14,562 bases of DNA from positions 1 through 14,562 of the forward strand of contig JAJYAS010000019.1 of the NCBI GenBank assembly GCA_021779415.1. The letters are read 5' to 3'. Made by a program: the position numbers and the translations under genes. The notes under the pieces are model-generated. The model did no database searches and was not told where the DNA came from. It saw only the letters and a list, made by a program, of their open reading frames with translations. Positions 741 through 14,204 of the stretch are shown here, piece after piece. Source of the DNA: Bacillota bacterium. GTDB taxonomy: Bacteria > Bacillota_B > Desulfitobacteriia > Desulfitobacteriales > Desulfitobacteriaceae. The first letter of the stretch is position 1, and each line of letters opens with the position of its first letter.

Positions 741-893
741 GTGTCTGCTATTAAGGATCGAGGGATTACTCAATATCTCAATAGAAAAGGTTGCTTTCAA
801 GAAATTGTAATTTTAAGGCAGAGAGTGATATCGGGAATGTGTTATGACACTGATTTTGATAAAGAAATTATGCTTAGGGGGGAAGCTAAATGA
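741..893 (+). CDS. Possible small leader protein, 50 aa, unrecognised
   Basis: An open frame from GTG at 741 runs 50 codons to a TGA whose bases overlap the ATG of the DUF499 gene as ATGA. That junction is typical of translational coupling. The predicted product starts MSAIKDRGITQYLN and ends DFDKEIMLRGEAK. Its last codons contain the AGGGGGGAA ribosome binding site of the downstream gene. No good Shine-Dalgarno precedes GTG 741, and a TATAAA -10 candidate overlaps this region. A shorter version from ATG 837 (18 codons) is therefore possible. I recognise no domain. It could be a genuine small component, a coupling leader, or a chance open frame. Confidence 0.35.
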   Translation: MSAIKDRGITQYLNRKGCFQEIVILRQRVISGMCYDTDFDKEIMLRGEAK

Positions 894-3800
894 AAACCTT
901 AAAGCAACTCTGTAAGCCTCGCCCAAGTGTTTTTGATCCTTCCAAGAGAGATATTGTCTTAGATCTCTCCGATCTTGTCGAAAATAGAATAAACGCAGAA
1001 GAATTTTTTGAAGAGAATTATATGACTGACGGAATGAAGACCTTACTGAAAGAATCATTCCGCAGGTTCGAAGCAAAGTCCACTCAGGGCGTTTTTAAAC
1101 TTACTCAGGCAATGGGAGGTGGTAAGACCCATAACTTATTGGTGCTCGGTCTCCTAGCAAAAAATCCGACGCTTCGCAAGAAGGTCATGGGTTCTCTTTA
1201 TGAGTCAAAGAGCCTAGGGCCTGTCCGCGTTGTCGCCTTCTCAGGCAGGGAAAGTGATGCTCCATTGGGAGTTTGGGGAGCTGTAGCCGATCAGTTAGGT
1301 AAAAAAGAAGTTTTTAAAGACTACTATTCCCCACTATCAGCTCCTGGCCAAACAGCTTGGATTAATCTCTTGAAAGGCGAGCCACTCCTTATCTTGCTAG
1401 ACGAACTACCTCCTTACTTCGAGTATGCAAAATCAAAAACCATTGGCAATTCCGACCTTTCTGAAGTAACAACAACTGCGCTGTCTAACTTGCTTGTGGC
1501 TGTGGGAAAAGATGAACTCTCCAATGTCTGCGTTGTCATATCAGATCTCAGGGCTACGTATCAGCAGGGCAGTAGCATGATTATGCGGGCTCTACAAAAC
1601 CTGGAAGCTGAACTTGGAAGGAGTGCCCTTAGCCTTGAGCCGGTAGGTATGAACACAGACGAGCTCTATCATATCTTACGAAAGCGACTTTTTGAAGATA
1701 TTGCGGATGATAAAGAAATAAAGGAAGTTGCACAGGGATATGCAAAGGCGGTTAAGGATGCCAAACAGATGGATATAACAACGGCATCGCCTGAAAAATT
1801 TGCCCAGCAAATTATGGAGTCATATCCTTTCCATCCGTCCATACGTGATCTTTATGCCCGATTTAGAGAAAATCCAGGGTTCCAGCAGACAAGAGGTCTC
1901 ATCAGGCTCATGAGGGTTATAGTTTCAAGGCTTTACAATCCATCGTTTCTCAAAGCCGACAAACGGTATTTGATATCTGCCGCTGATCTGGATTTGAATG
2001 ACAGGGAAACATTATCCGAGATAACACAGATAAACCCGACTCTCGAAAACGCGATCAGCCATGATATCGCCTCCAATGGTCAGGCAGTGGCAGAGAATAT
2101 GGATACTAACCTTGGCAATACCTATGCGTCCGATGCCTCTAAGTTGCTTCTGGTAGCTTCTCTTGCCAATGTTCCAAATGCGATACTTGGCCTCTCGCTC
2201 TCCGAAATAGTCTCTTATATGTGTGCTCCCGGAAGAGATGTTTCTGGCCTTAATGAAATTCTGTCCAACTTGACGACAAAAGCCTGGTATCTCCACTCAA
2301 ACCGTGAGGGCAAACTATTCTTTACCAAAGTTCAGAATCTCGTGGCAAAGTTAAAAACAATAGCTGAAAGCCTGAACCGGGAATCGTCTCTTAAAGAGCT
2401 TAAGGTCAGATTACTCGAAATGTTTAGCCCTTCACTCAAAGATTGCTATCAGGAAGTCCTTGCCCTGCCTCCTGTTGATGAGATAGAGATTAAGCCAGAG
2501 AAAGTCTGTCTGATTATTTATGAACCCACACAGAGCGGCGCGCTTAACCCTGATCTACAAAAGTTTTATGATAGCATTGAATACAAAAATCGTGTGCTCT
2601 TCCTTTCCGGGCAGCGAGGCACGCTTGAAGCCCTGATCGAAATATCAGCTGAGACTAAGGCTATTTCTACCATACTTCTTGAGATGGACACTGAAGGCAT
2701 CGCTGCCAATGATCCTCAGCGCCTAGCTGCAGTCGATATGTATGACAAGATATGCACCAGGCTGCTTAGTGCAGGAAGAGAGACGTTTACGACACTTATC
2801 TTCCCTAATATGGATGCTCTTAAAACCGCTGATTTTCTTATGAACTTCACTGACAACAATTATAATGGAGAAAAACAAATCAGAGAGACTTTAAAGGGCA
2901 AACAAAAATTCACGGAAGATATAGCTAGTGATTCCTTCAGAAAAAAATGTGAAGAAAGATTATTTACACAAAAAGTGATGCCGTGGACCGAAGTAAAGAA
3001 GAGGGCTGCAATGAATATTAAATGGCCATGGCATAGAGTTGATGCGCTTGATTCGCTGAAGGCTAATCTGGTATTTCAGGATCAATGGCGAGAAGAAGGT
3101 GGTTTTGTCGAAAAGCCGCCGTTTCCAAAGCCAAAGACAGAAGTGCGCATTCAGGAAATCCGTCGCGATGACAGCTCTGGAAGAGTATGGCTTAAACTTA
3201 CCCCTGTAAATGGAGATAACATCCATTATGAAATAGGCGGAGTCGCAACTGCAGGGTCTCTTAAGGTAAGTGACACAAGGAATTTTGAGACAGACGAGCT
3301 TGAGGTCTCTTTCTTATGTGTTGATTCCACAGGGGAACATGAAACTAGCAGCGCTGAAACATGGCGCAACCGTATAACGCTAAAATGGCAGGAATACCAA
3401 AACGGTCCAGAAAAAATGGTCAGACTTGAGTCTGCCCCAAAAGCTATTATCAAATATACCACTGATGGCTCTGATCCTAAGAATGCGGGCGGCACATACG
3501 ACGGCCCATTTGTGGTGCCTAAAGGCACTGTTTTTGTGCTGGCATATGGGCAGAAGAATAAAATATCCTCTGAAGTCTATAAGTTTGAGATTAACTGGGA
3601 AGAGGAGGGTGGAATTGTCATTGACCCTGAGAAACCTGCGCTCTGGAAAAGAAGGCATGAACCTAAAACAACAAAAGAATCATATGAACTGCTCCGCCTA
3701 ATGAAGAAATATTCTGTTAACATGCCGGGGCCTCGTGTCACTATTTCAGGTAAGAGCTGGATTGAATTAGCCGTAGACGAAAAAGTCTTAATCAGTTCCG

Positions 3801-3958
3801 ATCAAATGGATAAAGTCCTCGAATATCTCCGTAGCCTTTTAGATGAAGGTCAGGTGCAGATTGAAACATCGGCTCTGAAATTTCCGACAGGGCAAAGTCT
3901 TTTGGACTGGGTCGCAGAGGTGCAGACAGAACTGAAACCTGATGAGGTGTCACAATAA
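890..3958 (+). CDS. DUF499-family P-loop ATPase, anti-phage associated (BrxC/PglY-like)
   Basis: This is a 1022-residue cytoplasmic ATPase. A Walker A motif (QAMGGGKTH, residues 73-81) and a Walker B motif (LLILLDE, 167-172 or so) lie in the N-terminal third, followed by a sensor-like strand VCVVISD near 213-219. This pattern fits the DUF499/COG1483 AAA+ family, which includes BREX BrxC/PglY. No nuclease or methylase motif is seen. Near residues 855-878 the motif YTTDGSDP, followed by GPFVVPKG, resembles the chitobiase C-terminal-like beta-sandwich, an odd domain in an intracellular ATPase. The start ATG has a strong AGGGGGGAA site 5 nt upstream. The stop overlaps the next start (TAATG). As the first large gene of the operon, it probably powers assembly or DNA remodelling with the methylase and helicase. 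The family call is from motifs and context, so the exact subfamily is uncertain. Confidence 0.88.
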   Translation: MKTLKQLCKPRPSVFDPSKRDIVLDLSDLVENRINAEEFFEENYMTDGMKTLLKESFRRFEAKSTQGVFKLTQAMGGGKTHNLLVLGLLAKNPTLRKKVMGSLYESKSLGPVRVVAFSGRESDAPLGVWGAVADQLGKKEVFKDYYSPLSAPGQTAWINLLKGEPLLILLDELPPYFEYAKSKTIGNSDLSEVTTTALSNLLVAVGKDELSNVCVVISDLRATYQQGSSMIMRALQNLEAELGRSALSLEPVGMNTDELYHILRKRLFEDIADDKEIKEVAQGYAKAVKDAKQMDITTASPEKFAQQIMESYPFHPSIRDLYARFRENPGFQQTRGLIRLMRVIVSRLYNPSFLKADKRYLISAADLDLNDRETLSEITQINPTLENAISHDIASNGQAVAENMDTNLGNTYASDASKLLLVASLANVPNAILGLSLSEIVSYMCAPGRDVSGLNEILSNLTTKAWYLHSNREGKLFFTKVQNLVAKLKTIAESLNRESSLKELKVRLLEMFSPSLKDCYQEVLALPPVDEIEIKPEKVCLIIYEPTQSGALNPDLQKFYDSIEYKNRVLFLSGQRGTLEALIEISAETKAISTILLEMDTEGIAANDPQRLAAVDMYDKICTRLLSAGRETFTTLIFPNMDALKTADFLMNFTDNNYNGEKQIRETLKGKQKFTEDIASDSFRKKCEERLFTQKVMPWTEVKKRAAMNIKWPWHRVDALDSLKANLVFQDQWREEGGFVEKPPFPKPKTEVRIQEIRRDDSSGRVWLKLTPVNGDNIHYEIGGVATAGSLKVSDTRNFETDELEVSFLCVDSTGEHETSSAETWRNRITLKWQEYQNGPEKMVRLESAPKAIIKYTTDGSDPKNAGGTYDGPFVVPKGTVFVLAYGQKNKISSEVYKFEINWEEEGGIVIDPEKPALWKRRHEPKTTKESYELLRLMKKYSVNMPGPRVTISGKSWIELAVDEKVLISSDQMDKVLEYLRSLLDEGQVQIETSALKFPTGQSLLDWVAEVQTELKPDEVSQ

Positions 3959-4629
3959 TGGTAGCGGAATCGAAATCAGAGGGGTTTGGCTTTTTATCTT
4001 CAGAATCTGAACATCATTTTCTTGTCACGATTTCTGCAAGTGCAACTGATAAGGTTTTCATCAGTGAGCATTTTTCAACGGAAGACACGGAAGCTAAAAT
4101 GGCACTGAACTTCGCTCTCGGAAAAGAAGACTGCAACCTTAGAGTCATCCTGGACAGGTCAAAATGGAATGAGATAGCTGAACCATTAAAAATAGAATTT
4201 AATGAGAGGCTTAAAAGAGCTGGACTAGCAGCAGGAAAGTGGCAGACAGGTAAAACCCCCCTTTCCCGCCTTTTCGGTAAAGAACTTGCTCTTCTTGCAT
4301 GGGCTATCGAGGATTCAGATCCTGCTCTGATTCCGGTTGCTATAAGAAACTGGCAGGGGTTGAGGCCTGAGGAGCGTTGGTGGCTCTATACTATGACCAA
4401 TGCTGCAACTGGCCATGCAGTTCAAGGAAGAAACAAAGGTTGGAGAAAAGCGGTGAGATACGCGCTTACCGAAAACCCGATTTCGGATTATACCCCCGCT
4501 CATCGCATCGAGCTCTTTAAGGATACTGAACTTAAGCGAGACATGCCAATCAGCAAGCCTGCAAAAGGGAAAAAAAGAAATCCTGTCAAAAAAAAAGATA
4601 ACGGCTCGGTGCCGAGCCTGCTGGATTAG
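3958..4629 (+). CDS. DUF3780 protein, anti-phage associated
   Basis: This 223-residue protein has no catalytic motif that I can see. The N-terminus (EGFGFLSSESEHHFLVTI) and the central block ERWWLYTMTNAATGHA, with GRNKGWRKAVRYALTENP just after it, fit my recollection of DUF3780, a family found almost only beside DUF499 and DUF1156 genes. The C-terminal 35 residues are Lys-rich (KPAKGKKRNPVKKKD) and probably flexible, which could bind nucleic acid. The start overlaps the DUF499 stop by one base (TAATG), so translation is likely coupled and the two products may form a complex. The biochemical role is unknown. An adaptor or specificity subunit for the ATPase or methylase is inference only. There is no signal peptide or membrane segment. 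Confidence 0.8.
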   Translation: MVAESKSEGFGFLSSESEHHFLVTISASATDKVFISEHFSTEDTEAKMALNFALGKEDCNLRVILDRSKWNEIAEPLKIEFNERLKRAGLAAGKWQTGKTPLSRLFGKELALLAWAIEDSDPALIPVAIRNWQGLRPEERWWLYTMTNAATGHAVQGRNKGWRKAVRYALTENPISDYTPAHRIELFKDTELKRDMPISKPAKGKKRNPVKKKDNGSVPSLLD

Positions 4630-4634
4630 AGCTG

Positions 4635-7526
4635 ATGAGCCATAAAGCCTTTATCGAAACGCAATTTCCAATTTCAAAACTTTCAAAAGAAAGCTATAAA
4701 GAAAGAAAAGCTGTTCAAAGTCAGACCCTTACTGGCCTTGGTAAGTGGTGGGGACGAAAGCCACTTGTTCTAGTCAGATCTTCAATTATTGGACTCCTGA
4801 TGCCAGCAACTGATGATCCCAGAAAAGACCGTGAGATATTTCTCAAAGTCCTGACAATGGACAATGATGGTTTATGGTGCCGCAAAACCAGTCCAATCTC
4901 TCTTAAAGACATATATATTAGAGCGACTCCACGAGAACGGAAAGAATGGTTCGATCCAGAATCCTCAGAAAAAAAACCAAAGTACAAGAAAGATATTAAG
5001 GCCGATCAGAGAGAAATTATACAAAAAGCAATCTTTATGCGTATGTCCTATGATGATAAACTTGTTTATTGTGAGAGGCCGGAACAGATAGATGGGCCAA
5101 CCGAAAAGGCATGGTCTGAGATCAACGCCTACTTGGGAACAAATGCGCATACCATTGCTGAACTAATTCAAGAGCTCGGCATTAAACGCTTTGGTCACAT
5201 TCCGCTAGTGGGTGATGCTTTTTGTGGTGGTGGAAGCATCCCCTTCGAGGCTGCCAGGATAGGCTGTGAGGCTTACGGATCAGACCTTAATCCAGTTGGA
5301 ACTTTATTAACCTGGGCCTCGCTGAATATCGTGGGCGGAGGCTCTGAAGTTGCAGCTCAAGTGCAGGAAGACCAGAATAAAATCTATGGTTTCGTTGATA
5401 AACAAATTATTGACTGGGGTATTGAACACAATGAAAAGGGCTGGCGTGCTGATGCCTACCTGTATTGCAATGAAGCTGTTTGTCCAGAATGTGGGTGGAA
5501 AGTACCGTTGCTGTCCACGTTTCTTATAGGGCCGACATCTCGATGTATTGCTGTCTTAAAGGCCGACATGAAGAATAGACGATTTAATATTGACGTGAAA
5601 TCAGATGTCTCTAAAGATGAAATAGAAGATGCCAAAATTAACTCGACGCTGAGTGATTCATATCTGGTATGTCCAAATAGCGATTGCCTTCAAAAAACTC
5701 CCATTTCTATGCTCCGGGGCGATCGCGGAGGCGATTATGGTCTAAGAATGTGGGAAAATAGTGATTTCATACCCCGGCCAGACGATGTATTTCAGGAGCG
5801 GCTTTATTGTATCAGATGGGTCGAAACATATTTTGATGATAAAGGGAATCCACATACCAGAAGGCATTTTAGGGCGCCCGATGCAAATGACCTAAAGAGA
5901 GAACTGGAAGTGATTGATCTGCTGAAAGAACACTTTACAGAATGGCAGGAGAAAGGCTACATACCAGGCAGAAAGATCGAGCCAGGGACGAAAACAGATG
6001 AACCTATCAGAACTCGCGGCTGGACTCACTGGCATCATTTGTTTACACCACGCCAACTATTGACTCATGGTCTTTTATTACAGAAGACATTCTCACTAGA
6101 TTGCTCATTATTCGGAAAAGTTGCATCAGTCCTTGGTGTTGGGAGATGCGCAAATTGGGACAGTAGGCTTTGTCAGTGGGGAGTCGGAGCTGCGCGTGAG
6201 TCAATTGCTCAAACCTTCTATAATCAAGCTCTTAATGCTTTTTTCAATTATGCAGGAAAAGGGCTTAGTTTGCTTTCTGGGGTTTATTTTATTAATTTTC
6301 CTGAAACCATATTATCAGCACAAAGTGAAACGGCGCCAAAAGATGCAAGATTGATAAGCAATAATGTTGATGTATGGATAACTGACCCACCTTATGCAGA
6401 CGCTATCAATTATCATGAACTAACAGAATTTTTTCTTGCGTGGTACGAAAAACATATTCTCACACTCTTTCCCGGCTGGTATGCAGATAGCAAGAGAGCC
6501 CTTGCTGTTGTAGGGTCCGATGAAAACTTCCGTAAAAGCATGGTTGACTGCTATCGTAATCTTGTGGCTCATATGCCGGACGATGGCATGCAGGTTGTAA
6601 TGTTTACCCATCAGGACGCGAGCGTATGGGCAGACTTAGCTTTGATCCTCTGGGCCTCCGGATTAAGGGTTACCGCAGCCTGGTGTATTGCTACTGAGAC
6701 AGATTCAGCCCTTAAAGAGGGAAATTATGTCCAGGGAACAGTGCTGCTTGTCCTGCGCAAACAAACCTCGGAAGAAACCGCCTTCCTTGATGAGATTTAT
6801 TCACAGATCGAGACAGAAGTCGAGACACAACTTAAATCCATGCTGGCCCTTGAAGACGATGAAGACCCTAATTTCGGCGATGCTGACTATCAGCTTGCGG
6901 CCTATGCCGCTGCTCTACGGGTACTTACGCAATACAAAAAGATTGAAGAGATTGATGTTGCCTATGAACTGGCCAAGCCTCGCAAAAGAGGAGAGGTATC
7001 TCCTATCGAGCATGTTATTGCAAACGCCGTAAAAGCAGCCTGTGACTACCTTGTGCCAAAAGGCTTTGATACTTTTATCTGGAAGACTTTGGCTCCGGAA
7101 GAAAGGCTTTACCTCAAAGGACTTGAGATAGAGAGCCATGGAGAGTTCCGTACAGGCGTGTATCAGGAGCTTGCAAGGGGATTTGGCATAAAAGAATATA
7201 AGCCACTTCTTGAAAGCGGAAAGGCTAATCAGACACGAATAAAGACCGCGACTGAATTCTCAACTAAGGAGCTCGGGAGCGCGGGCTTTGGGTCATCGCT
7301 TGTTCGCAACGCATTATTTGCCATCAGAGAGGTGGTAAAGACAGAGGAAGTGCAACAGGGCAAGAATTGGCTCAAAAATGAAGTAAAAGACTACTGGAAC
7401 CAGAGGACAAATATCATTGAGATACTTCGCTACCTTTCAACAATGGGATATAAAATTGACCATTGGAAAAAGGACGCTGAGGCGGCCGGTCTGCTTGGCG
7501 GTGCCGTTCAGAATGATCATATATAA
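4635..7526 (+). CDS. DUF1156 adenine-type DNA methyltransferase (PglXI-like)
   Basis: This is a 963-residue S-adenosylmethionine-dependent DNA methylase. The N-terminus (FIETQFPISKLSKES, then LGKWWGRKPLVLVR) is the DUF1156 signature. Motif I, binding SAM, is FCGGGS at 196-201, with SDLNP at 216-220. Catalytic motif IV is DPPY at 584-587, which fits N6-adenine or N4-cytosine methylation. The order, motif I then a long insert then motif IV, is alpha-class-like, so target recognition probably lies between them. That insert holds Cys pairs C283-C286 (CPEC) and C346-C351 (CPNSDC), a likely zinc ribbon. DUF1156/COG1743 methylases serve as PglXI in type 3 BREX. The gene starts 5 nt after the DUF3780 stop, with only a weak ribosome site (GAGCTG), so coupling is likely. 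It presumably marks host DNA as self. The target site is unknown. Confidence 0.88.
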   Translation: MSHKAFIETQFPISKLSKESYKERKAVQSQTLTGLGKWWGRKPLVLVRSSIIGLLMPATDDPRKDREIFLKVLTMDNDGLWCRKTSPISLKDIYIRATPRERKEWFDPESSEKKPKYKKDIKADQREIIQKAIFMRMSYDDKLVYCERPEQIDGPTEKAWSEINAYLGTNAHTIAELIQELGIKRFGHIPLVGDAFCGGGSIPFEAARIGCEAYGSDLNPVGTLLTWASLNIVGGGSEVAAQVQEDQNKIYGFVDKQIIDWGIEHNEKGWRADAYLYCNEAVCPECGWKVPLLSTFLIGPTSRCIAVLKADMKNRRFNIDVKSDVSKDEIEDAKINSTLSDSYLVCPNSDCLQKTPISMLRGDRGGDYGLRMWENSDFIPRPDDVFQERLYCIRWVETYFDDKGNPHTRRHFRAPDANDLKRELEVIDLLKEHFTEWQEKGYIPGRKIEPGTKTDEPIRTRGWTHWHHLFTPRQLLTHGLLLQKTFSLDCSLFGKVASVLGVGRCANWDSRLCQWGVGAARESIAQTFYNQALNAFFNYAGKGLSLLSGVYFINFPETILSAQSETAPKDARLISNNVDVWITDPPYADAINYHELTEFFLAWYEKHILTLFPGWYADSKRALAVVGSDENFRKSMVDCYRNLVAHMPDDGMQVVMFTHQDASVWADLALILWASGLRVTAAWCIATETDSALKEGNYVQGTVLLVLRKQTSEETAFLDEIYSQIETEVETQLKSMLALEDDEDPNFGDADYQLAAYAAALRVLTQYKKIEEIDVAYELAKPRKRGEVSPIEHVIANAVKAACDYLVPKGFDTFIWKTLAPEERLYLKGLEIESHGEFRTGVYQELARGFGIKEYKPLLESGKANQTRIKTATEFSTKELGSAGFGSSLVRNALFAIREVVKTEEVQQGKNWLKNEVKDYWNQRTNIIEILRYLSTMGYKIDHWKKDAEAAGLLGGAVQNDHI

Positions 7527-7540
7527 AAGGAAATTCTTTA

Positions 7541-10228
7541 GTGATTAAACGCTTCTCATCGCTTCGTCAGAAAATAGACCAATCTTTTCTTACCGACAGG
7601 CTTAAAGGAGCTAAAAAATACGACAGAATCGCTGGATATTTCAGTTCTTCCATCCTTGAAGTGGCCGGAGAAGCAATAGAGTCGATGGAAGGTCCCGTCA
7701 GACTTGTATGCAATTCTCAGCTCGAAATGGCGGACGTTCAGACCGCAAAAGCAGCTCAAATGGCAATCCGCCAGGAATGGTGCGCGTCAGAGCCGGAGAA
7801 ATATCCCGAGATAGCAAAAGATCGGTTTAGGCGGCTCTATGAATTTCTACGATCGGGGAAATTGGCTGTAAAGGTCTTGCCTTCGGAGAAGTTCGGACTT
7901 ATTCATGGCAAAGCCGGCGTAATTACGCTTGCAAATGGACAGAAAAGCGCTTTTCTTGGCAGCGTAAACGAAACAATCAGCGCATGGAAACTCAATTATG
8001 AACTCCTTTGGGAAGATGATTCATCGGATGCAGTTAAATGGGTCGAAGATGAATTCAATGCTTTATGGGAAAGTCATTATGCTATTACTCTGGCCGAATT
8101 TGTAATAGATGATCTCGATCGGCTCATACGCAGACAGGTTATAGCCAGTGTTGATGATTGGCGTGAGGATCCTGATTCGGCTTCGACTGTTATCGAGTCT
8201 CCTATCTATCGCAAGGAGGTCGGACTGGCAGAGCATCAAAAATATTTTATTAAGCTTGCCTTCGATGCCCACAATAGCCCTTATGGCGCGAGATTTGTTC
8301 TTGCTGACGGAGTGGGACTCGGGAAAACCCTGCAGCTTGCTATGGCGGCTCAGCTAATGGCGCTTCAGGGCGATAGGCCTGTTCTAATCATCGTCCCCAA
8401 AACACTGCTTTGGCAGTGGCAGGATGAATTGAAGACCCTTCTTGATATCCCATCTGCTGTATGGAATGGAAAGCAGTGGATCGATGAGAACGGACTTGCT
8501 TATCCCTCTTCTGGCACTGAGGATATTAAGAGATGCCCCCGACGGATTGGTATATTGTCACAGGGGCTTATCATCAACAGTAAATCCGGAGTTGCGGAGT
8601 TTCTGCAAAGCATGCAATATGAGTGCGTAATAGTTGATGAATCTCATCGGGCAAGGCGAAAAAACCTCGGCCCGGACCGCGAGGGTGAGAAGCCTGATGC
8701 AAACAATCTCCTGAACTTTTTGTATGCGATCTCGCAGCGCACAAAAAGCCTGATCTTGGCAACGGCCACTCCAGTACAGCTCTATCCAGTTGAGGCATGG
8801 GATCTTCTGAGCGCAATGAGTGCGGGAAGTGAATCTGTCCTTGGCAACGATTTCAGCAACTGGAGAAAGGCCGGAGAAGCGCTTAGCCTGATCATGGGTA
8901 ACAGAGACATGCCTAATGATGATCTGGAGGCGTGGGCCTGGATCAGAAATCCGCTTCCCCCTGCGTCAGAAGATCGGGACTTTTTTCTGTTAAGAAGATC
9001 TCTTAAGCTTTCGGATGAAGTCGTAGTTTTGCCAGGAGGTGTGTGGGATACCCTTTCAAGTCCTGATAAGACTCGAATAAGAAGAATTGCAGGCCACTTT
9101 GCCCAGTTACATAACCCGTTTATCCGCCATATAGTAAGACGTACAAGGGATTACCTTGAAAAAACATTAGATCCTGAAACGAACGAGCCATTTCTTAAGC
9201 CCATTAAGGCTGAGCTTCATGGTGAAACTGATAAGGATGCCATTTTGCTGCCCCCTTATTTGAAGGATGCCTATAAGATTGCTGAGGAGTTTTGTCAGCT
9301 TCTATCTTCCAGGGTTAAAGGTGGCGGATTTTTAAAAACTCTGCTTTTAAGACGTGTAGGCAGCACCATTGTCGCCGGTAAAATCACTGCTGAAAAAATG
9401 CTTGGGACTTGGCAGGATATCCCCGAGATGGATGAAGAAGAGGAAGACGGTCAAATTAATGATGAAATGAAAACCATGACGCCAACGGAACGAGCCAAGT
9501 TAAAGGCATTTATAGATGCATTGGAGGCGAATCAGGACAAAGATCCCAAATTGGCAAGGGTACTTACCTACCTTCTTGAGAAACGCTGGCTGGAAAAAGG
9601 CTGCATAATATTTTCTCAGTACTATGATTCAATAATCTGGTTGGGGGAACAAATCTCTGCAGAACTACCCGATGAAACCGTTGGTATTTATGCGGGAGGG
9701 CAAAAGTCTGGGTTCATAAAAAATGGGTTATTCTCGAACGCAGAGAGAGACACTTTAAAGTTGATGGTTCGTAAAGGTGAACTCAGGCTATTGCTTGGCA
9801 CCGATGCTGCTAGCGAAGGGCTTAATCTTCAGAGGCTTGGAACTCTTATTAACCTTGACCTTCCCTGGAACCCCACCAGACTTGAACAGAGAAAAGGACG
9901 GATTCAGCGTATTGGCCAGATCAGGGATACGGTAGAAATATATAATATGCGTTATAAGGACTCGGTCGAGGATCGGGTTCATCAGCTTCTGTCAGAACGA
10001 CTCGAAAATATCCATACTCTTTTTGGACAAATTCCCGATGTGTTAGAAGATGTCTGGATAGACGTGGCCTTTGGCGATATTGAAAAGGCAAAACAGGTTA
10101 TCAATTCAGTACCCAAGCAACATCCTTTTGAAGTGAAATATAGCAAAGTCGAAAAAGTCCCGTGGGAAACCTGTGCAAGAGTTCTTGATTCAACAAACAG
10201 GAAAAGATTTTTATCTCAGGGGTGGTAA
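7541..10228 (+). CDS. PLD-domain plus SNF2 helicase, anti-phage associated (BrxHII-like motor)
   Basis: This 895-residue protein fuses two modules. The N-terminal part has a phospholipase D-type nuclease signature: H122-G-K124 and, 16 residues on, G140-S-V-N143. The Asp usually found after HxK is Thr129 here. Only one such motif is present, so activity would need a dimer. From about 230 onward it is an SNF2-type superfamily 2 motor: Walker A DGVGLGKT (256-263), DESH (366-369), TATP (408-411) and motif VI QRKGRIQRIGQ (783-793). The start is GTG, preceded by AAAAGGA about 10 nt upstream, and lies 14 nt after the methylase stop. It is the last gene of the operon and a likely effector that translocates on, and perhaps cuts, unmodified DNA. 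Domain calls are firm; nuclease activity is inferred. Confidence 0.9.
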   Translation: MIKRFSSLRQKIDQSFLTDRLKGAKKYDRIAGYFSSSILEVAGEAIESMEGPVRLVCNSQLEMADVQTAKAAQMAIRQEWCASEPEKYPEIAKDRFRRLYEFLRSGKLAVKVLPSEKFGLIHGKAGVITLANGQKSAFLGSVNETISAWKLNYELLWEDDSSDAVKWVEDEFNALWESHYAITLAEFVIDDLDRLIRRQVIASVDDWREDPDSASTVIESPIYRKEVGLAEHQKYFIKLAFDAHNSPYGARFVLADGVGLGKTLQLAMAAQLMALQGDRPVLIIVPKTLLWQWQDELKTLLDIPSAVWNGKQWIDENGLAYPSSGTEDIKRCPRRIGILSQGLIINSKSGVAEFLQSMQYECVIVDESHRARRKNLGPDREGEKPDANNLLNFLYAISQRTKSLILATATPVQLYPVEAWDLLSAMSAGSESVLGNDFSNWRKAGEALSLIMGNRDMPNDDLEAWAWIRNPLPPASEDRDFFLLRRSLKLSDEVVVLPGGVWDTLSSPDKTRIRRIAGHFAQLHNPFIRHIVRRTRDYLEKTLDPETNEPFLKPIKAELHGETDKDAILLPPYLKDAYKIAEEFCQLLSSRVKGGGFLKTLLLRRVGSTIVAGKITAEKMLGTWQDIPEMDEEEEDGQINDEMKTMTPTERAKLKAFIDALEANQDKDPKLARVLTYLLEKRWLEKGCIIFSQYYDSIIWLGEQISAELPDETVGIYAGGQKSGFIKNGLFSNAERDTLKLMVRKGELRLLLGTDAASEGLNLQRLGTLINLDLPWNPTRLEQRKGRIQRIGQIRDTVEIYNMRYKDSVEDRVHQLLSERLENIHTLFGQIPDVLEDVWIDVAFGDIEKAKQVINSVPKQHPFEVKYSKVEKVPWETCARVLDSTNRKRFLSQGW

Positions 10229-10671: not shown

Positions 10672-11817
10672 CTATGTTTTGTTATATTCGACCAATGCGC
10701 GCCGCCATGCTCTTATCCACTGACCATTATTACGTGGCTCCTCCATAAGAACAGATGCGTCTTCGAGTGTGAGCCATCGTCTCTCAGCTTGGCCTAGGAG
10801 ACTGCCTATATCTATTGATCCATTTGAAATACGTTCCTCGAGATCAGCAAAAGCATACATATAATGACGCCAGCTCAGTGCAAGCCATGCCTGTCCTTCA
10901 GCCGAGTCGAGAATTTCCAAAATCTGCAAACCGAAAGGATTCGAGAGGCTAGCCTCACTTAATGCCCTTTGATCTCGGACACGTATCACATCTGATTCTC
11001 GAAGAAAGCCGAGGAGTGACTCCTCAAACCAATAAGGTAATTGTTGGCCTCCTTCCGACGGTTCTGCAAACCGGGAATTCGTATATCTGCGAAGATTAAA
11101 ATATTTCCCGGTAGCGCATACGGATGCCCCAGCTGCCTTCCATAAAACAAAGTCTGAAGAACTGAAGCCAACTATCACATTTAGGTCGTTCTTCTCTAAC
11201 GTAGAAATAAGTCTCATAGCACCCTTCAACTCTTCGGGATTGGATAATTCCCGGCGTGGTTCCGTTGTTCCAACAAACACCAAATAAACGTAATCTGCTT
11301 TGGTTCGCGAGATAATTGATGCAATTTCTAGTGCTCTTCGGGGGACGGACAAATCTGACAATCCAGCAATTACTGTTTGTATTGGGCTCGTTCCAGTGCC
11401 TTCTAGACTTCTAGAGAAAAAATCTGAAAGCCTAACCATCATTGAGTAATATTCATTTTGAAAAACTACAGGAGTGAACGCAGGAGAACAGGCTCCCTTT
11501 GGGTTTATTCTGGCGCACACTTCAGCCAATTTTCCAGTAACTTCCTGCCACCAGGACTCTGAGGATAAATCGGCAGTATCGACTTCTGTTGGAAAGTAAC
11601 TCCATTCTCTCAAGTGACCACGCTCACTTCGAGGATAATATAATTGCGGATCAAAGATCGTGTTAAATCCCCGCTGTTCATTGAGCAAGTTTATTTGGCT
11701 CACTACACTATCTTCTGCTTCATTTACGGGACTTAAGATGGCCCCAGAAAACTTTGATAGTTCTTCGATGTAGAGGAGGTTTTTTGTATCATGTCCCATC
11801 TGGTGATAAACGGCCAC
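10672..11817 (-). CDS. Unrecognised 381-aa protein, possible alpha/beta barrel, third gene of the kinase module
   Basis: I do not recognise this family with certainty. Hydrophobic strands alternate with helices (AILSPVN, NTIFDPQLYYP, IQTVIAGLSD, DYVYLVFVG, LNVIVGFSSSDFVLWKAAG, then CATGKYFNLRRYT). This pattern suggests a TIM-barrel-like fold with conserved-looking polar ends, FDPQ and TGKYFNLRR. The C-terminal third is helical and Trp/Arg-rich (WLALSWRHYMY, RRWLTLEDA, WIRAWRRAL). No signal peptide or membrane segment is evident. The start is GTG at 11817, overlapping the kinase TAG stop by one base, with a perfect AGGAGGTGA ribosome site 7 nt upstream. The next Met is six residues in and lacks a site. 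Strong coupling to the kinase suggests it is a substrate, effector or sensor partner. An enzymatic role on nucleotides or nucleic acid is possible but unproven. Confidence 0.8.
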   Translation of the reverse strand: MAVYHQMGHDTKNLLYIEELSKFSGAILSPVNEAEDSVVSQINLLNEQRGFNTIFDPQLYYPRSERGHLREWSYFPTEVDTADLSSESWWQEVTGKLAEVCARINPKGACSPAFTPVVFQNEYYSMMVRLSDFFSRSLEGTGTSPIQTVIAGLSDLSVPRRALEIASIISRTKADYVYLVFVGTTEPRRELSNPEELKGAMRLISTLEKNDLNVIVGFSSSDFVLWKAAGASVCATGKYFNLRRYTNSRFAEPSEGGQQLPYWFEESLLGFLRESDVIRVRDQRALSEASLSNPFGLQILEILDSAEGQAWLALSWRHYMYAFADLEERISNGSIDIGSLLGQAERRWLTLEDASVLMEEPRNNGQWIRAWRRALVEYNKT

Positions 11818-12677
11818 TATTTTTCACCTCCTGATGTTCTTTCACGCCATGCTCGACTCAAATGCTCGGGAGTCCGATATCTGTCAGCAGGCCACGGGGA
11901 AATCATTATTGCGATTGGTAGCAATCCTTTTTCTTTGATTTCCTTACAAACACTACTTTCTGGCGGATCTCGGCGAGCAACTCTGTTTACTATGTCGTCC
12001 GAACTGTCATGAAAGTGTGCATAGGGGTGCATACCTAACAAGCAAATAGAGAGGACAACTCCGAGGGAAAACTGATCTGTCCTCCAATCAATCAGGTCTT
12101 TTTCATTGTTCAACTGTTCGGGAGCTGCAAAGTAAGGAGTTCCTGGCCCGGCCATAGCCCAAGTGGGAGTAAGAGAATAATCTGACAGATCCCGCACGAC
12201 ACCAAAGTCTACTATAACTGGTGTGGCCTTATCTTCTCTGAAAAGAATATTATCCGGCTTAATATCGCGGTGTACCAAATCATGTGATGCTATATGCCCG
12301 ATAGCATCAATAAGAATTGTCCCGAGATCGTGGGTATAATCATATCCTGCGGGTCCCTTTTTCAGTTCCTCCGTCAAGGTGCCCCCGGGCAGGTACTCCT
12401 CAATCATATATGTATACCCTTTGCCCTTGAAGTCGAATCTTGAAAGTTCGATTAATCTTACAACATTAGGATGAGAGCAACGCTGCATGGCTTCTATTTC
12501 CCGATCTAATCTGTCACGGGAACTGCGACCCTCTTTAAAAACTTTGAGAGCCTCATCAAGTCCACTTGTATTCTTAACACGAAAAGTTTCTTTAAAAGTA
12601 CCTTTCCCTTTCGGCTCGACGAAGGTGTAGTTCTTCATCTTAGATATTTCTTTGGCTACTGGCTCGAGGTAATACAT
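11817..12677 (-). CDS. Hanks-type Ser/Thr protein kinase
   Basis: This 286-residue soluble kinase phosphorylates proteins. All catalytic landmarks are present, numbered from ATG 12677: glycine loop GKGTF (24-28), ATP lysine K45 in EALKVF, helix C E60, catalytic loop HRDIKPDN (136-143), DFG at 157-159, APE at 185-187, and D201 in DQFSLG. It is essentially a bare catalytic domain with no transmembrane or sensor domain, unlike PknB-type receptors. The frame is open up to 12728, but ATG 12677 is preferred. It follows the nuclease-like gene stop by 2 nt and has GGAAG 7 nt upstream. The earlier ATG would overlap the upstream gene by 49 bases. It probably phosphorylates or is controlled by its operon partners. 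Confidence 0.93.
   Translation of the reverse strand: MYYLEPVAKEISKMKNYTFVEPKGKGTFKETFRVKNTSGLDEALKVFKEGRSSRDRLDREIEAMQRCSHPNVVRLIELSRFDFKGKGYTYMIEEYLPGGTLTEELKKGPAGYDYTHDLGTILIDAIGHIASHDLVHRDIKPDNILFREDKATPVIVDFGVVRDLSDYSLTPTWAMAGPGTPYFAAPEQLNNEKDLIDWRTDQFSLGVVLSICLLGMHPYAHFHDSSDDIVNRVARRDPPESSVCKEIKEKGLLPIAIMISPWPADRYRTPEHLSRAWRERTSGGEK
11824..11832 (-). promoter_or_regulatory. Strong ribosome binding site that fixes a GTG start
   Basis: Read on the minus strand this is AGGAGGTGA, lying within the last codons of the kinase gene and 7 nt before GTG 11817. It supports GTG rather than the ATG six codons later. Confidence 0.85.
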
Positions 12678-12679
12678 AA

Positions 12680-13102
12680 TTAATCTTCCATAGCACAAGC
12701 GAATGAAACTGCCCTCTCGCGTAACCAAGGCTGAAGGGGAGTACTGTTTGGCGCATCATGCACAATCATAAGATCATTTTCAGAAACGAAGCACAACCCA
12801 ACTCCAAGTCGCGCAAACTCTGCTTCAAAACGAGAAGCGCTAATACCCGAAGACTCCGGAAGTACGACATAGGAGCGGTCGGCAAAACATTTATTGCGAT
12901 AAGCCTGACGTAGTGCCACTCGCCACTTTGTCAGTTTTGCCTCAAAGGCTAAAACCTTGCCGTCTTCAGAAACTGCTACAACATCTGTCCGTCCTCGGCT
13001 GTAAAAAAATTCCAATCTTACCTTGATTTGCCCCCACGGAGAAGAATCGTCTCGTGCTTGTTGTAAAAAGCAATTCACCAGAGCCTTCTCGCTTACAAAC
13101 AT
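12680..13102 (-). CDS. PD-(D/E)XK nuclease-like protein, 140 aa
   Basis: This small protein has the core layout of a PD-(D/E)XK nuclease. Numbered from ATG 13102, D40 lies in GRTDVVAV, followed 14 residues later by E54-A-K56 in VLAFEAKL. A helix with W60, Q66 and Y68 (KWRVALRQAYRNK) and the strand SYVVLP come next. An early Glu, E5, could be the helix-1 acid. The Mrr/VRR-type fold usually cuts DNA, but small standalone members can be inactive or regulatory. The frame is open to 13126, but AGGAGGTGA 4 nt before ATG 13102 fixes the shorter start. It is the first gene of the kinase module, 2 nt upstream of the kinase start. AT-rich repeats (ATACTATACTATAG, 13150-13163 or so) upstream could include a -10 element, but no clear -35 is seen. 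Confidence 0.82.
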   Translation of the reverse strand: MFVSEKALVNCFLQQARDDSSPWGQIKVRLEFFYSRGRTDVVAVSEDGKVLAFEAKLTKWRVALRQAYRNKCFADRSYVVLPESSGISASRFEAEFARLGVGLCFVSENDLMIVHDAPNSTPLQPWLRERAVSFACAMED

Positions 13103-13106
13103 GACA

Positions 13107-13115
13107 TCACCTCCT
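13107..13115 (-). promoter_or_regulatory. Strong ribosome binding site deciding the nuclease-like start
   Basis: AGGAGGTGA on the minus strand lies 4 nt before ATG 13102. The upstream in-frame ATG 13126 has no such site, and translation from it would simply read through this element as Gly-Gly-Asp. Confidence 0.85.
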
Positions 13116-13736: not shown

Positions 13737-14204
13737 CTACTTTAGTCCATTAGCCGCACCAACTTCCTGGGCCCGAGAAAAAAGGGCGATATATAAATCA
13801 TCAGGTATTTTCTTTGCCTTCCTTAGTTTTTGTATAACGGTATATGGGTTGAGAATAAGCACGTACTGGTATTTTCCAGCTGTCCCCGGTTTTACCTCAA
13901 TAAAACCTAATTCAGCAAGAAGCTTCATTCTGGTATGCCAGGTTGTAACTTGTCTCTCGCCCGAAAACCCACCTTCCGATGCGACCTCTCTTTCATTCTT
14001 GATTTCGATAAATGATGCATCAAAAACACGACACCATAGGCTTAAATAAGCCTGGGAAACAGGTTTCCCCTTGCCGGCCAGGTGATCCATTATTTGAAGT
14101 ATCTGTGGCATAGGGCGCGGTATTGTAGTAAACCCTTGGTTGCGCCGGGCAATCTGTATCTTCTCTTTCCGACCTATCTGTCGACTTAGTATGGAGCTAT
14201 GAAC
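13737..14204 (-). pseudogene. Winged-helix-like protein, apparently missing its N-terminus
   Basis: The frame is open from just after a TAA at 14205-14207 to TAG 13737. The segment QVTTWHTRMKLLAELGFIEVKPG, followed by YQYVLILNPYTVIQ, looks like a winged-helix recognition region. A 124-residue product could start at ATG 14111, but no ribosome site precedes that ATG. The 31 codons before it also read as protein (RRNQGFTTIPRPMPQIL), and no ATG, GTG or TTG occurs among them. I infer that a longer gene lost its 5' end. It sits beside an insertion sequence and a repeat cluster. Plasmid- or island-type DNA-binding proteins share this general shape. If translated from 14111 it could still regulate nearby genes. 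Confidence 0.55.

What the first reader, a model, noticed from the sequence alone, without database searches (positions are those of the whole stretch)
10672..13102. Candidate undescribed three-gene module: PD-(D/E)XK-like protein, Ser/Thr kinase and unknown alpha/beta protein
Seen: three minus-strand genes with a 2-nt gap and a 1-nt overlap, two of them with near-perfect AGGAGGTGA sites. The kinase has every catalytic residue and the small protein has D40-E54-K56. Inference: a kinase-regulated effector system in a defence island. I do not recall this exact trio as a named system. The kinase could license or restrain the nuclease, with the 381-aa protein as sensor or enzyme.
Basis: partly seen in the sequence, partly recalled or inferred. 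Interest (0 to 1): 0.78.

Follow-up and report, generated by a model that had tools for sequence, protein, structure and literature searches.

The report
Nuclease–kinase–TGT-fold putative defence trio
Three neighbouring genes (a probable DNA-cutting enzyme, a protein kinase and a protein shaped like a base-swapping enzyme) travel together through bacteria, archaea, plasmids and phages and look like an undescribed anti-phage module; its activity has not been tested.

The parts
12680..13102 (-). Small PD-(D/E)XK nuclease-fold protein (NUC), 140 aa; active-site residues E31, D40, E54-x-K56, Q66
11817..12677 (-). Hanks-type Ser/Thr protein kinase (KIN), 286 aa, all catalytic residues present (K45, E60, D138, N143, D157)
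   Evidence: Pfam PF00069 E 7.4e-33; residues kept in 27 of 27 trios (whose numbers are 17 higher)
10672..11817 (-). TGT-fold TIM-barrel protein (TGL), 381 aa, GTG start; motif D56-P-Q-x-Y60-x-P62, plus G237, N241, R243
13107..13115 (-). AGGAGGTGA ribosome-binding site of the nuclease gene
   Evidence: Read
11824..11832 (-). AGGAGGTGA ribosome-binding site of the TGT-fold gene, inside the kinase end
   Evidence: Read
890..10228 (+). Neighbour, not part of the trio: Type-2 BREX-related (BR) operon, DUF499 ATPase 890-3958, DUF3780 3958-4629, DUF1156 N6-methyltransferase 4635-7526, PLD-helicase 7541-10228; convergent with the trio
   Evidence: NCBIfam NF042963 and NF042964 over their cut-offs, NF042962 and NF042961 strong but under theirs; PADLOC PDLC02189-02193; system described in PMC12839542 (passages)

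Best explanation
The trio is a mobile anti-phage (anti-foreign-DNA) module. The small protein is a DNase effector of the PD-(D/E)XK superfamily. The Ser/Thr kinase is the switch that licenses or restrains it. The TGT-fold protein is the sensor: it keeps the base-facing half of a transglycosylase pocket (D56 and Y60, spaced like TGT Asp102 and Tyr106) but seems to lack the covalent nucleophile, so it most likely binds rather than exchanges a guanine-type base, nucleotide or modified DNA. On binding, it would change kinase activity; phosphorylation would then release the nuclease onto DNA. Its repeated position beside or inside methyltransferase-based systems suggests a second layer against phages that evade or inhibit restriction or BREX. 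Shown: conserved operon, kept active sites, folds (predicted models), restriction/BREX and mobile-element context. Inferred: order of action, ligand, direction of kinase control. My estimates: defence module about 0.8; kinase controls the nuclease about 0.55; the TGT-fold protein is a non-transglycosylating sensor about 0.5; ligand is a guanine-type base about 0.3.
For: Fixed gene order and tight spacing in 31 colinear loci, window included; 5 convergent. A kinase gene next to each of the 39 full-length TGT-fold genes whose contig reaches far enough (split in L015, shortened in L004). Distances of the three proteins covary (r 0.70-0.94, 0 of 2000 permutations; shared host ancestry contributes). 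Active sites kept. TGT fold. Trio inside a type-3 BREX operon in L053: BrxC, DUF4062 protein, PglXI, trio, BrxHII, PglZ. Near type ISP, IIG-like or III genes in L001, L002, L011, L015, L020, L028; no such match among the families shown for 19 control windows of the same genomes; 7 of 26 against 0 of 19, Fisher one-sided p 0.014 (the category was chosen after seeing the trio flanks). Phage cargo: between terminase and portal in L091, after a head-morphogenesis gene in L026, and, by my reading of ORF starts, between an integrase and repressor-like genes in L094. Plasmids L027, L028. Patchy: 9 true hits in 1326 genomes other than the chosen centres. Kinase-based prophage defence exists elsewhere (KKP, PMC11341870, abstract).
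Against: No functional test. 19 of the 26 fetched colinear trios with scanned flanks show no restriction/BREX match in my scans, partly because contigs are short and lists capped. The control windows are not free of PADLOC candidate-defence matches (PDC-M41B 9e-114, PDC-M30B 2.7e-108, SoFic 2.3e-42, a type II nicking enzyme 8.6e-18). None of 50,697 phage records and only 2 of 72,556 plasmid records hold the 381-aa protein at E 1e-5; phage carriage rests on IMG/VR contigs. The window's trio is convergent with, not part of, the BR operon. Profile comparison gave no sequence-level link to TGT or DpdA, though it also missed the known DpdA-TGT link. The place of Asp280 is set by strand order; 6 of 36 members have an Asp two residues before the assigned place. 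Strand 7-8 also resembles a general phosphate-binding motif, so the ligand may not be a base. In 5 loci the nuclease is on the other strand.
Confidence: 0.5

Rival explanations
1. The TGT-fold protein is an active enzyme that modifies DNA or RNA with a base (like DpdA), and the nuclease cuts DNA lacking or bearing that mark: a small restriction-like system with the kinase as regulator.
For: TGT fold over nearly the whole length; D56 and Y60 spaced like catalytic Asp102 and base-stacking Tyr106 (PMC6165067 passages); bacterial dpdA genes lie in RM-like clusters (PMC6884629 passages).
Against: No acid at positions 235-237, the likely place of the nucleophile Asp280, in 36 of 36 family members, though 6 have Asp at 233; no conserved Cys3-His set (C110 in 23 of 36, C234 in 16 of 36). 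No preQ0-synthesis or other Dpd gene is among the families shown for the flanks, but those lists are capped at 25.
Confidence: 0.15
2. The TGT-fold protein is a phosphate- or nucleotide-binding barrel that senses or makes a small nucleotide signal, not a base; the kinase and nuclease then act downstream.
For: Foldseek also ranks PdxJ, tryptophan synthase alpha and other barrels high, PdxJ first; the strand 7-8 stretch (GF-S/T-S ... AGA ... A-T/S-G-K) looks like the usual phosphate loop of such barrels (my reading, recalled motif).
Against: In the Foldseek rows shown, TM normalised by the query is 0.48-0.52 for TGTs and at most 0.41 for the others; the 50 VIA-align rows shown are all TGTs, many of them one Zymomonas protein.
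Confidence: 0.2
3. Toxin-antitoxin-like module of mobile elements: the kinase or nuclease is toxic, the others neutralise it, and it serves plasmid or prophage stability with phage defence as a by-product.
For: Presence on plasmids and in phage contigs; KKP is a kinase-based tripartite toxin-antitoxin in prophages (PMC11341870, abstract).
Against: Also embedded in a BREX operon and next to restriction genes, where persistence of an element is not an obvious need; three enzyme-like folds with kept active sites rather than a small antitoxin.
Confidence: 0.15
4. DNA-repair module: the nuclease resembles MmcB-like repair proteins, and the trio handles base damage rather than invaders.
For: Nearest solved fold is 3dnx, deposited as a protein of unknown function, which I recall as MmcB-like; archaeal repair endonuclease folds (2vld, EndoMS 5gke) also rank high.
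Against: Very patchy distribution (9 of 1326 genomes), restriction/BREX neighbours, phage-contig and plasmid carriage.
Confidence: 0.07

Closest known systems
tRNA-guanine transglycosylase / DpdA (TGT superfamily)
   Same: Barrel fold and length, matched over model residues 1-379, D-x3-Y motif after strand 3
   Different: No acid at the likely nucleophile place, no zinc site, no sequence-level link; host genomes carry a separate housekeeping TGT in 12 of 13
Dpd system and the HerA/FtsK BREX-related capture system with TGT (PMC12839542)
   Same: TGT-fold protein in a DNA-based defence setting
   Different: As described in the passages I read, those have DpdB/DpdC, or HerA, PglZ and GNAT, and no Ser/Thr kinase with a stand-alone small nuclease is named
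PglW (type-2 BREX) and DndF: NERD nuclease fused to Ser/Thr kinases
   Same: PD-(D/E)XK-clan nuclease coupled with an active Ser/Thr kinase in a defence system (passages)
   Different: One large protein with other sensor domains; here three separate genes and a TGT-fold partner
PD-T4-6, MAD6, Stk2, KKP kinases
   Same: Hanks-type kinases used in phage defence; best PADLOC hits of the kinase are mad6 (7.1e-41) and PD-T4-6 (7.3e-39)
   Different: Match is to the kinase domain; no other gene of those systems was seen beside the window's trio
PARIS and other auxiliary effectors of BREX/BR loci
   Same: Extra module inserted in or next to BREX and BR loci as a second layer (PMC12839542 section 35, part 1 of 2 read)
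   Different: Different protein families; the trio is not named in the part read

Membership tests
PD-(D/E)XK nuclease superfamily | Alpha-beta core fold of the superfamily | tested here: met
   Model pLDDT 95.7; matches 3dnx, PaqCI, EndoMS, XisH, Can2 folds
PD-(D/E)XK nuclease superfamily | D...ExK catalytic motif | tested here: met
   D40, E54, K56, with E31 and Q66; invariant in 28 aligned sequences; D, E, K, Q kept 27 of 27, E31 25 of 27
PD-(D/E)XK nuclease superfamily | DNA cleavage | not testable with these tools
   Needs an assay
Hanks-type Ser/Thr kinase | Kinase profile and complete catalytic set | tested here: met
   PF00069 7.4e-33; Lys, Glu, HRD Asp, Asn, DFG Asp 27 of 27
tRNA-guanine transglycosylase | TGT barrel fold | tested here: met
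tRNA-guanine transglycosylase | Nucleophile Asp280 at strand 8 | tested here: not met
   Small or non-acidic residues at 235-237 in 36 of 36; place assigned by strand order, not by superposed coordinates, and 6 of 36 have Asp at 233
tRNA-guanine transglycosylase | Zinc site (Cys3-His) | tested here: not met
   No conserved cysteine set; C110 in 23 of 36 and C234 in 16 of 36 are the commonest
tRNA-guanine transglycosylase | Base exchange in tRNA | not testable with these tools
   Needs enzyme assay
DpdA / Dpd system | DpdA sequence family | tested here: inconclusive
   No Pfam hit up to E 1; profile comparison with phage DpdA blank, but that test also missed DpdA vs TGT
Dpd system | Other Dpd genes next to it | tested here: inconclusive
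   None among the 25 families shown per flank scan; lists are cut
PD-T4-6 | Stand-alone kinase acting alone (recalled) | tested here: not met
   In the 39 testable loci, all fetched through the other two genes, the kinase adjoins the TGT-fold gene; a solo life of this kinase was not searched for
MADS | mad1-mad8 gene set (recalled) | tested here: not met
   Among the rows shown for the eight window proteins scanned, only the kinase matches a mad model
Type-2 BR (DUF499) system | Core DUF499, DUF3780, MTase, HKD-helicase | tested here: not met
   In the window these form a separate convergent operon; no DUF499 or DUF3780 is among the families shown for flanks of other trios (capped lists)

The most novel reading that the evidence does not exclude
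An undescribed, ancient defence system of its own kind: a catalytically retired transglycosylase barrel reads hypermodified or free 7-deazaguanine-type bases, the very marks phages use to evade restriction, and through a Ser/Thr kinase turns on a DNase. It would be a modification-sensing counterpart to restriction and BREX loci, spread by plasmids and temperate phages across bacteria and archaea.
Probability: 0.2. Interest if true: 0.9.

Novelty: new variant of a known kind. Interest (0 to 1): 0.74.

Why it matters
It would add a three-gene defence module with a partner type not seen in the described systems I could check: a TGT-fold protein tied to a protein kinase and a nuclease. It could explain how hosts answer phages that hide their DNA with guanine modifications, and it suggests kinase signalling wired into restriction and BREX loci. 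The trio is compact (2.4 kb), so tests are easy.

Tried and rejected
Sequence links for the 381-aa protein: Pfam, NCBIfam, PADLOC, PHROGs and PDB sequence searches gave nothing of weight. Profile-profile comparison with host TGTs (eight loci fetched, six genes carried the motif I searched and were used) and with five phage DpdA proteins was blank; its positive control, DpdA against TGT, also failed, so it says nothing either way. A search for Pfam DpdA in 100 genomes rang nowhere, the 14 controls included, so it is uninformative. The viral structure library gave weak, mixed barrel matches with some queuine tRNA-ribosyltransferases.

Considered and rejected: that the trio is a part of the neighbouring BR system (convergent operon); that the adjacency is chance (kept down to about 14% identity); that the kinase is simply PD-T4-6.

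Results against the reading: the 381-aa protein is in 0 of 50,697 phage records and 2 of 72,556 plasmid records at E 1e-5. L024, L025 and L067 hold only fragments of the TGT-fold gene; L025 fuses the kinase start to its end, so some copies are decayed; in L015 the kinase reads as two ORFs and in L004 it is short. L004 and L116 have kinase and TGT-fold gene but no recognised nuclease. Short matches L042, L043, L068 and L114/L117 are not trios. Of the nuclease hits, L092, L107, L108, L109 and L110 are not complete trios; L109 keeps a kinase fragment.

Rows dropped before the 27-row counts: L015 (split kinase), L008 (moved nuclease), L004, L006, L021, L023, L024, L025, L049 (same contig as L012), L067, L068; loci found later were not in it. 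One search added nine (L008, L089, L091, L093, L094, L095, L106, L115, L116), making 36. The foreground flank scan used 215 of 243 complete ORFs within 6.5 kb (110 aa or more; 26 of the 27 fetched colinear loci had any, L051 none); the control used 90 of 98 ORFs of 200 aa or more in 20 windows, six shorter than 12 kb and one of them (L086) without ORFs, hence 19. Family lists are capped: 25 of 76 and 25 of 184 shown for the trio flanks, 25 of 31 for the control. The control did hit PADLOC candidate families (mad3 in four proteins, PDC-M41, PDC-M30B, SoFic, PDC-S07), as did the trio flanks (PDC-M68B, PDC-S52); I compared restriction-methyltransferase and BREX genes only, a choice made after seeing the flanks. 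The tree correlation does not remove shared host ancestry, and phyla are taken from record titles of mostly metagenome-assembled genomes.

Full report
What is there. The first encodes 140 aa, the second a 286-aa protein kinase, the third 381 aa from a GTG start. No whole genome is held for the window. The window's left part, on the other strand and convergent, is a known system: DUF499, DUF3780, DUF1156 methyltransferase and PLD-helicase, called Type-2 BR in PMC12839542 (passages).

The kinase is complete. Pfam PF00069 matches at 7.4e-33. The catalytic Lys, alpha-C Glu, HRD Asp, Asn and DFG Asp are kept in 27 of 27 trios, as is a Thr in the activation loop (T187 numbering, T170 in the 286-aa protein).

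The three genes belong together. A scan of representative genomes gave 25 loci. With later fetches, 27 loci besides the window show nuclease > kinase > TGT-fold gene on one strand, and three more came from viral contigs and a further phylum search (L089, L091, L115): 31 with the window. In five (L008, L093, L094, L095, L106) the nuclease is convergent at the far side of the TGT-fold gene. Each of the 39 full-length TGT-fold genes with enough contig has a kinase gene next to it (split in L015, shortened in L004); a nuclease is recognised in 36 of the 39, missing in L004 and L116, and in L006 the contig ends. Pairwise identities among the TGT-fold proteins of 27 trios fall to 14% (median 35%), and distances covary between the three proteins (r 0.88-0.94; 0.70-0.81 within 21 core members; 0 of 2000 permutations reached them). 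Record titles name Rubrobacter, Acidobacteria, Planctomycetota, a deltaproteobacterium, Armatimonadetes, Gemmatimonadetes, Eremiobacterota, Myxococcales, Anaerolineales, Hydrogenedentota, Clostridiales, Gallionella, Alphaproteobacteria and Verrucomicrobia for colinear trios, mostly metagenome-assembled genomes; also a Polaromonas plasmid and a haloarchaeal plasmid.

It is rare. Nine of 1326 genomes in five phyla, the chosen centre genome of each left out, have a full TGT-fold gene with its kinase, eight of them with the nuclease recognised. This is a lower bound: the convergent trio of G015 in the same set was found only through the nuclease. The protein is in 2 of 72,556 plasmid records and 0 of 50,697 phage records; the phage cases come from IMG/VR contigs, where a nuclease-based scan found six of seven contigs with all three genes.

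Context speaks for defence. In L053 the trio sits inside a type-3 BREX operon: BrxC (DUF6079), a DUF4062 protein, PglXI, nuclease, kinase, TGT-fold gene, BrxHII, PglZ, all on one strand with tight spacing; the next small gene is probably BrxA (one BrxA match at 1.6e-97 in the same set; assigned by me). Type ISP-like enzymes lie near the trio in L011 and L020, type IIG-like genes in L001, L002 and L028, a type III Res in L015 ('type ISP' from Pfam names), with a type III Mod match in the same set. That is 7 of the 26 fetched colinear trios whose flanks were scanned, plus the window. In 19 control windows with ORFs (20 fetched, 225 kb) from the same host genomes no restriction-methyltransferase or BREX match is among the families shown; the nearest is a type II nicking enzyme at 8.6e-18. 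Fisher one-sided p is 0.014. The controls do hit PADLOC candidate families such as PDC-M41B (9e-114), PDC-M30B (2.7e-108) and SoFic (2.3e-42), so the contrast is in restriction/BREX genes, a category I chose after seeing the flanks, and not in any PADLOC match. In phage contigs the trio sits between terminase large subunit and portal (L091), behind a head-morphogenesis gene (L026), and between an integrase and repressor-like genes (L094, my reading of ORF starts). L001 has an integrase just upstream.

How it probably works. Given a nuclease, a kinase and a barrel that keeps a base-facing pocket but apparently no nucleophile, the most economical model is sensor (TGT-fold), switch (kinase), effector (nuclease). 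The recurring company of methyltransferase-based systems suggests a back-up layer, as argued for other extra effectors of BREX/BR loci (PMC12839542 section 35, part 1). A specific and testable form: phages carry 7-deazaguanine bases that block restriction (PMC6884629, abstract and passages), and a retired transglycosylase is a natural reader for them. This last step is speculation.

Is it known? No match to the nuclease or the TGT-fold protein in Pfam, PADLOC-DB 2.0 (2023) or NCBIfam 20, nor of the TGT-fold protein in PHROGs. The listings of paper searches show no such trio; bioRxiv and most subscription papers are not held, so a description elsewhere is possible. Papers seen: PMC12839542 (passages and section 35 part 1), PMC6884629 and PMC6165067 (passages), PMC11341870 (abstract and outline); others only as listings.

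Noticed in passing
L107:3491-5399 and L108:3380-5474: A possible two-gene cousin: a nuclease-like gene convergent with a 382-393-aa protein bearing 'DAGVDRYHWP / DPGMDGLHWP', reminiscent of the DPQxYxP motif, without a kinase found in the 10 kb read; in L107 next to cas1. No HMM link to the TGT-fold family was found.
   Followed up: partly
L053:3495-19900: Type-3 BREX operon with the trio inserted between PglXI and BrxHII.
   Followed up: yes
L028:9198-9887: Haloarchaeal plasmid trio is followed by a calcineurin-like phosphoesterase, a possible phosphatase partner of the kinase.
   Followed up: partly
L089:1735-3369: Viral contig with a trio also carries an ORF with a DPPF-type methyltransferase motif (my reading); not scanned against a library.
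   Followed up: no
window 13737-14111 (-): 124-aa ORF upstream of the trio with no match in Pfam, PADLOC, NCBIfam or PHROGs.
   Followed up: partly
L025:9941-10324: Kinase start fused in frame to the TGT-fold end: a decayed trio, apparently by internal deletion.
   Followed up: no
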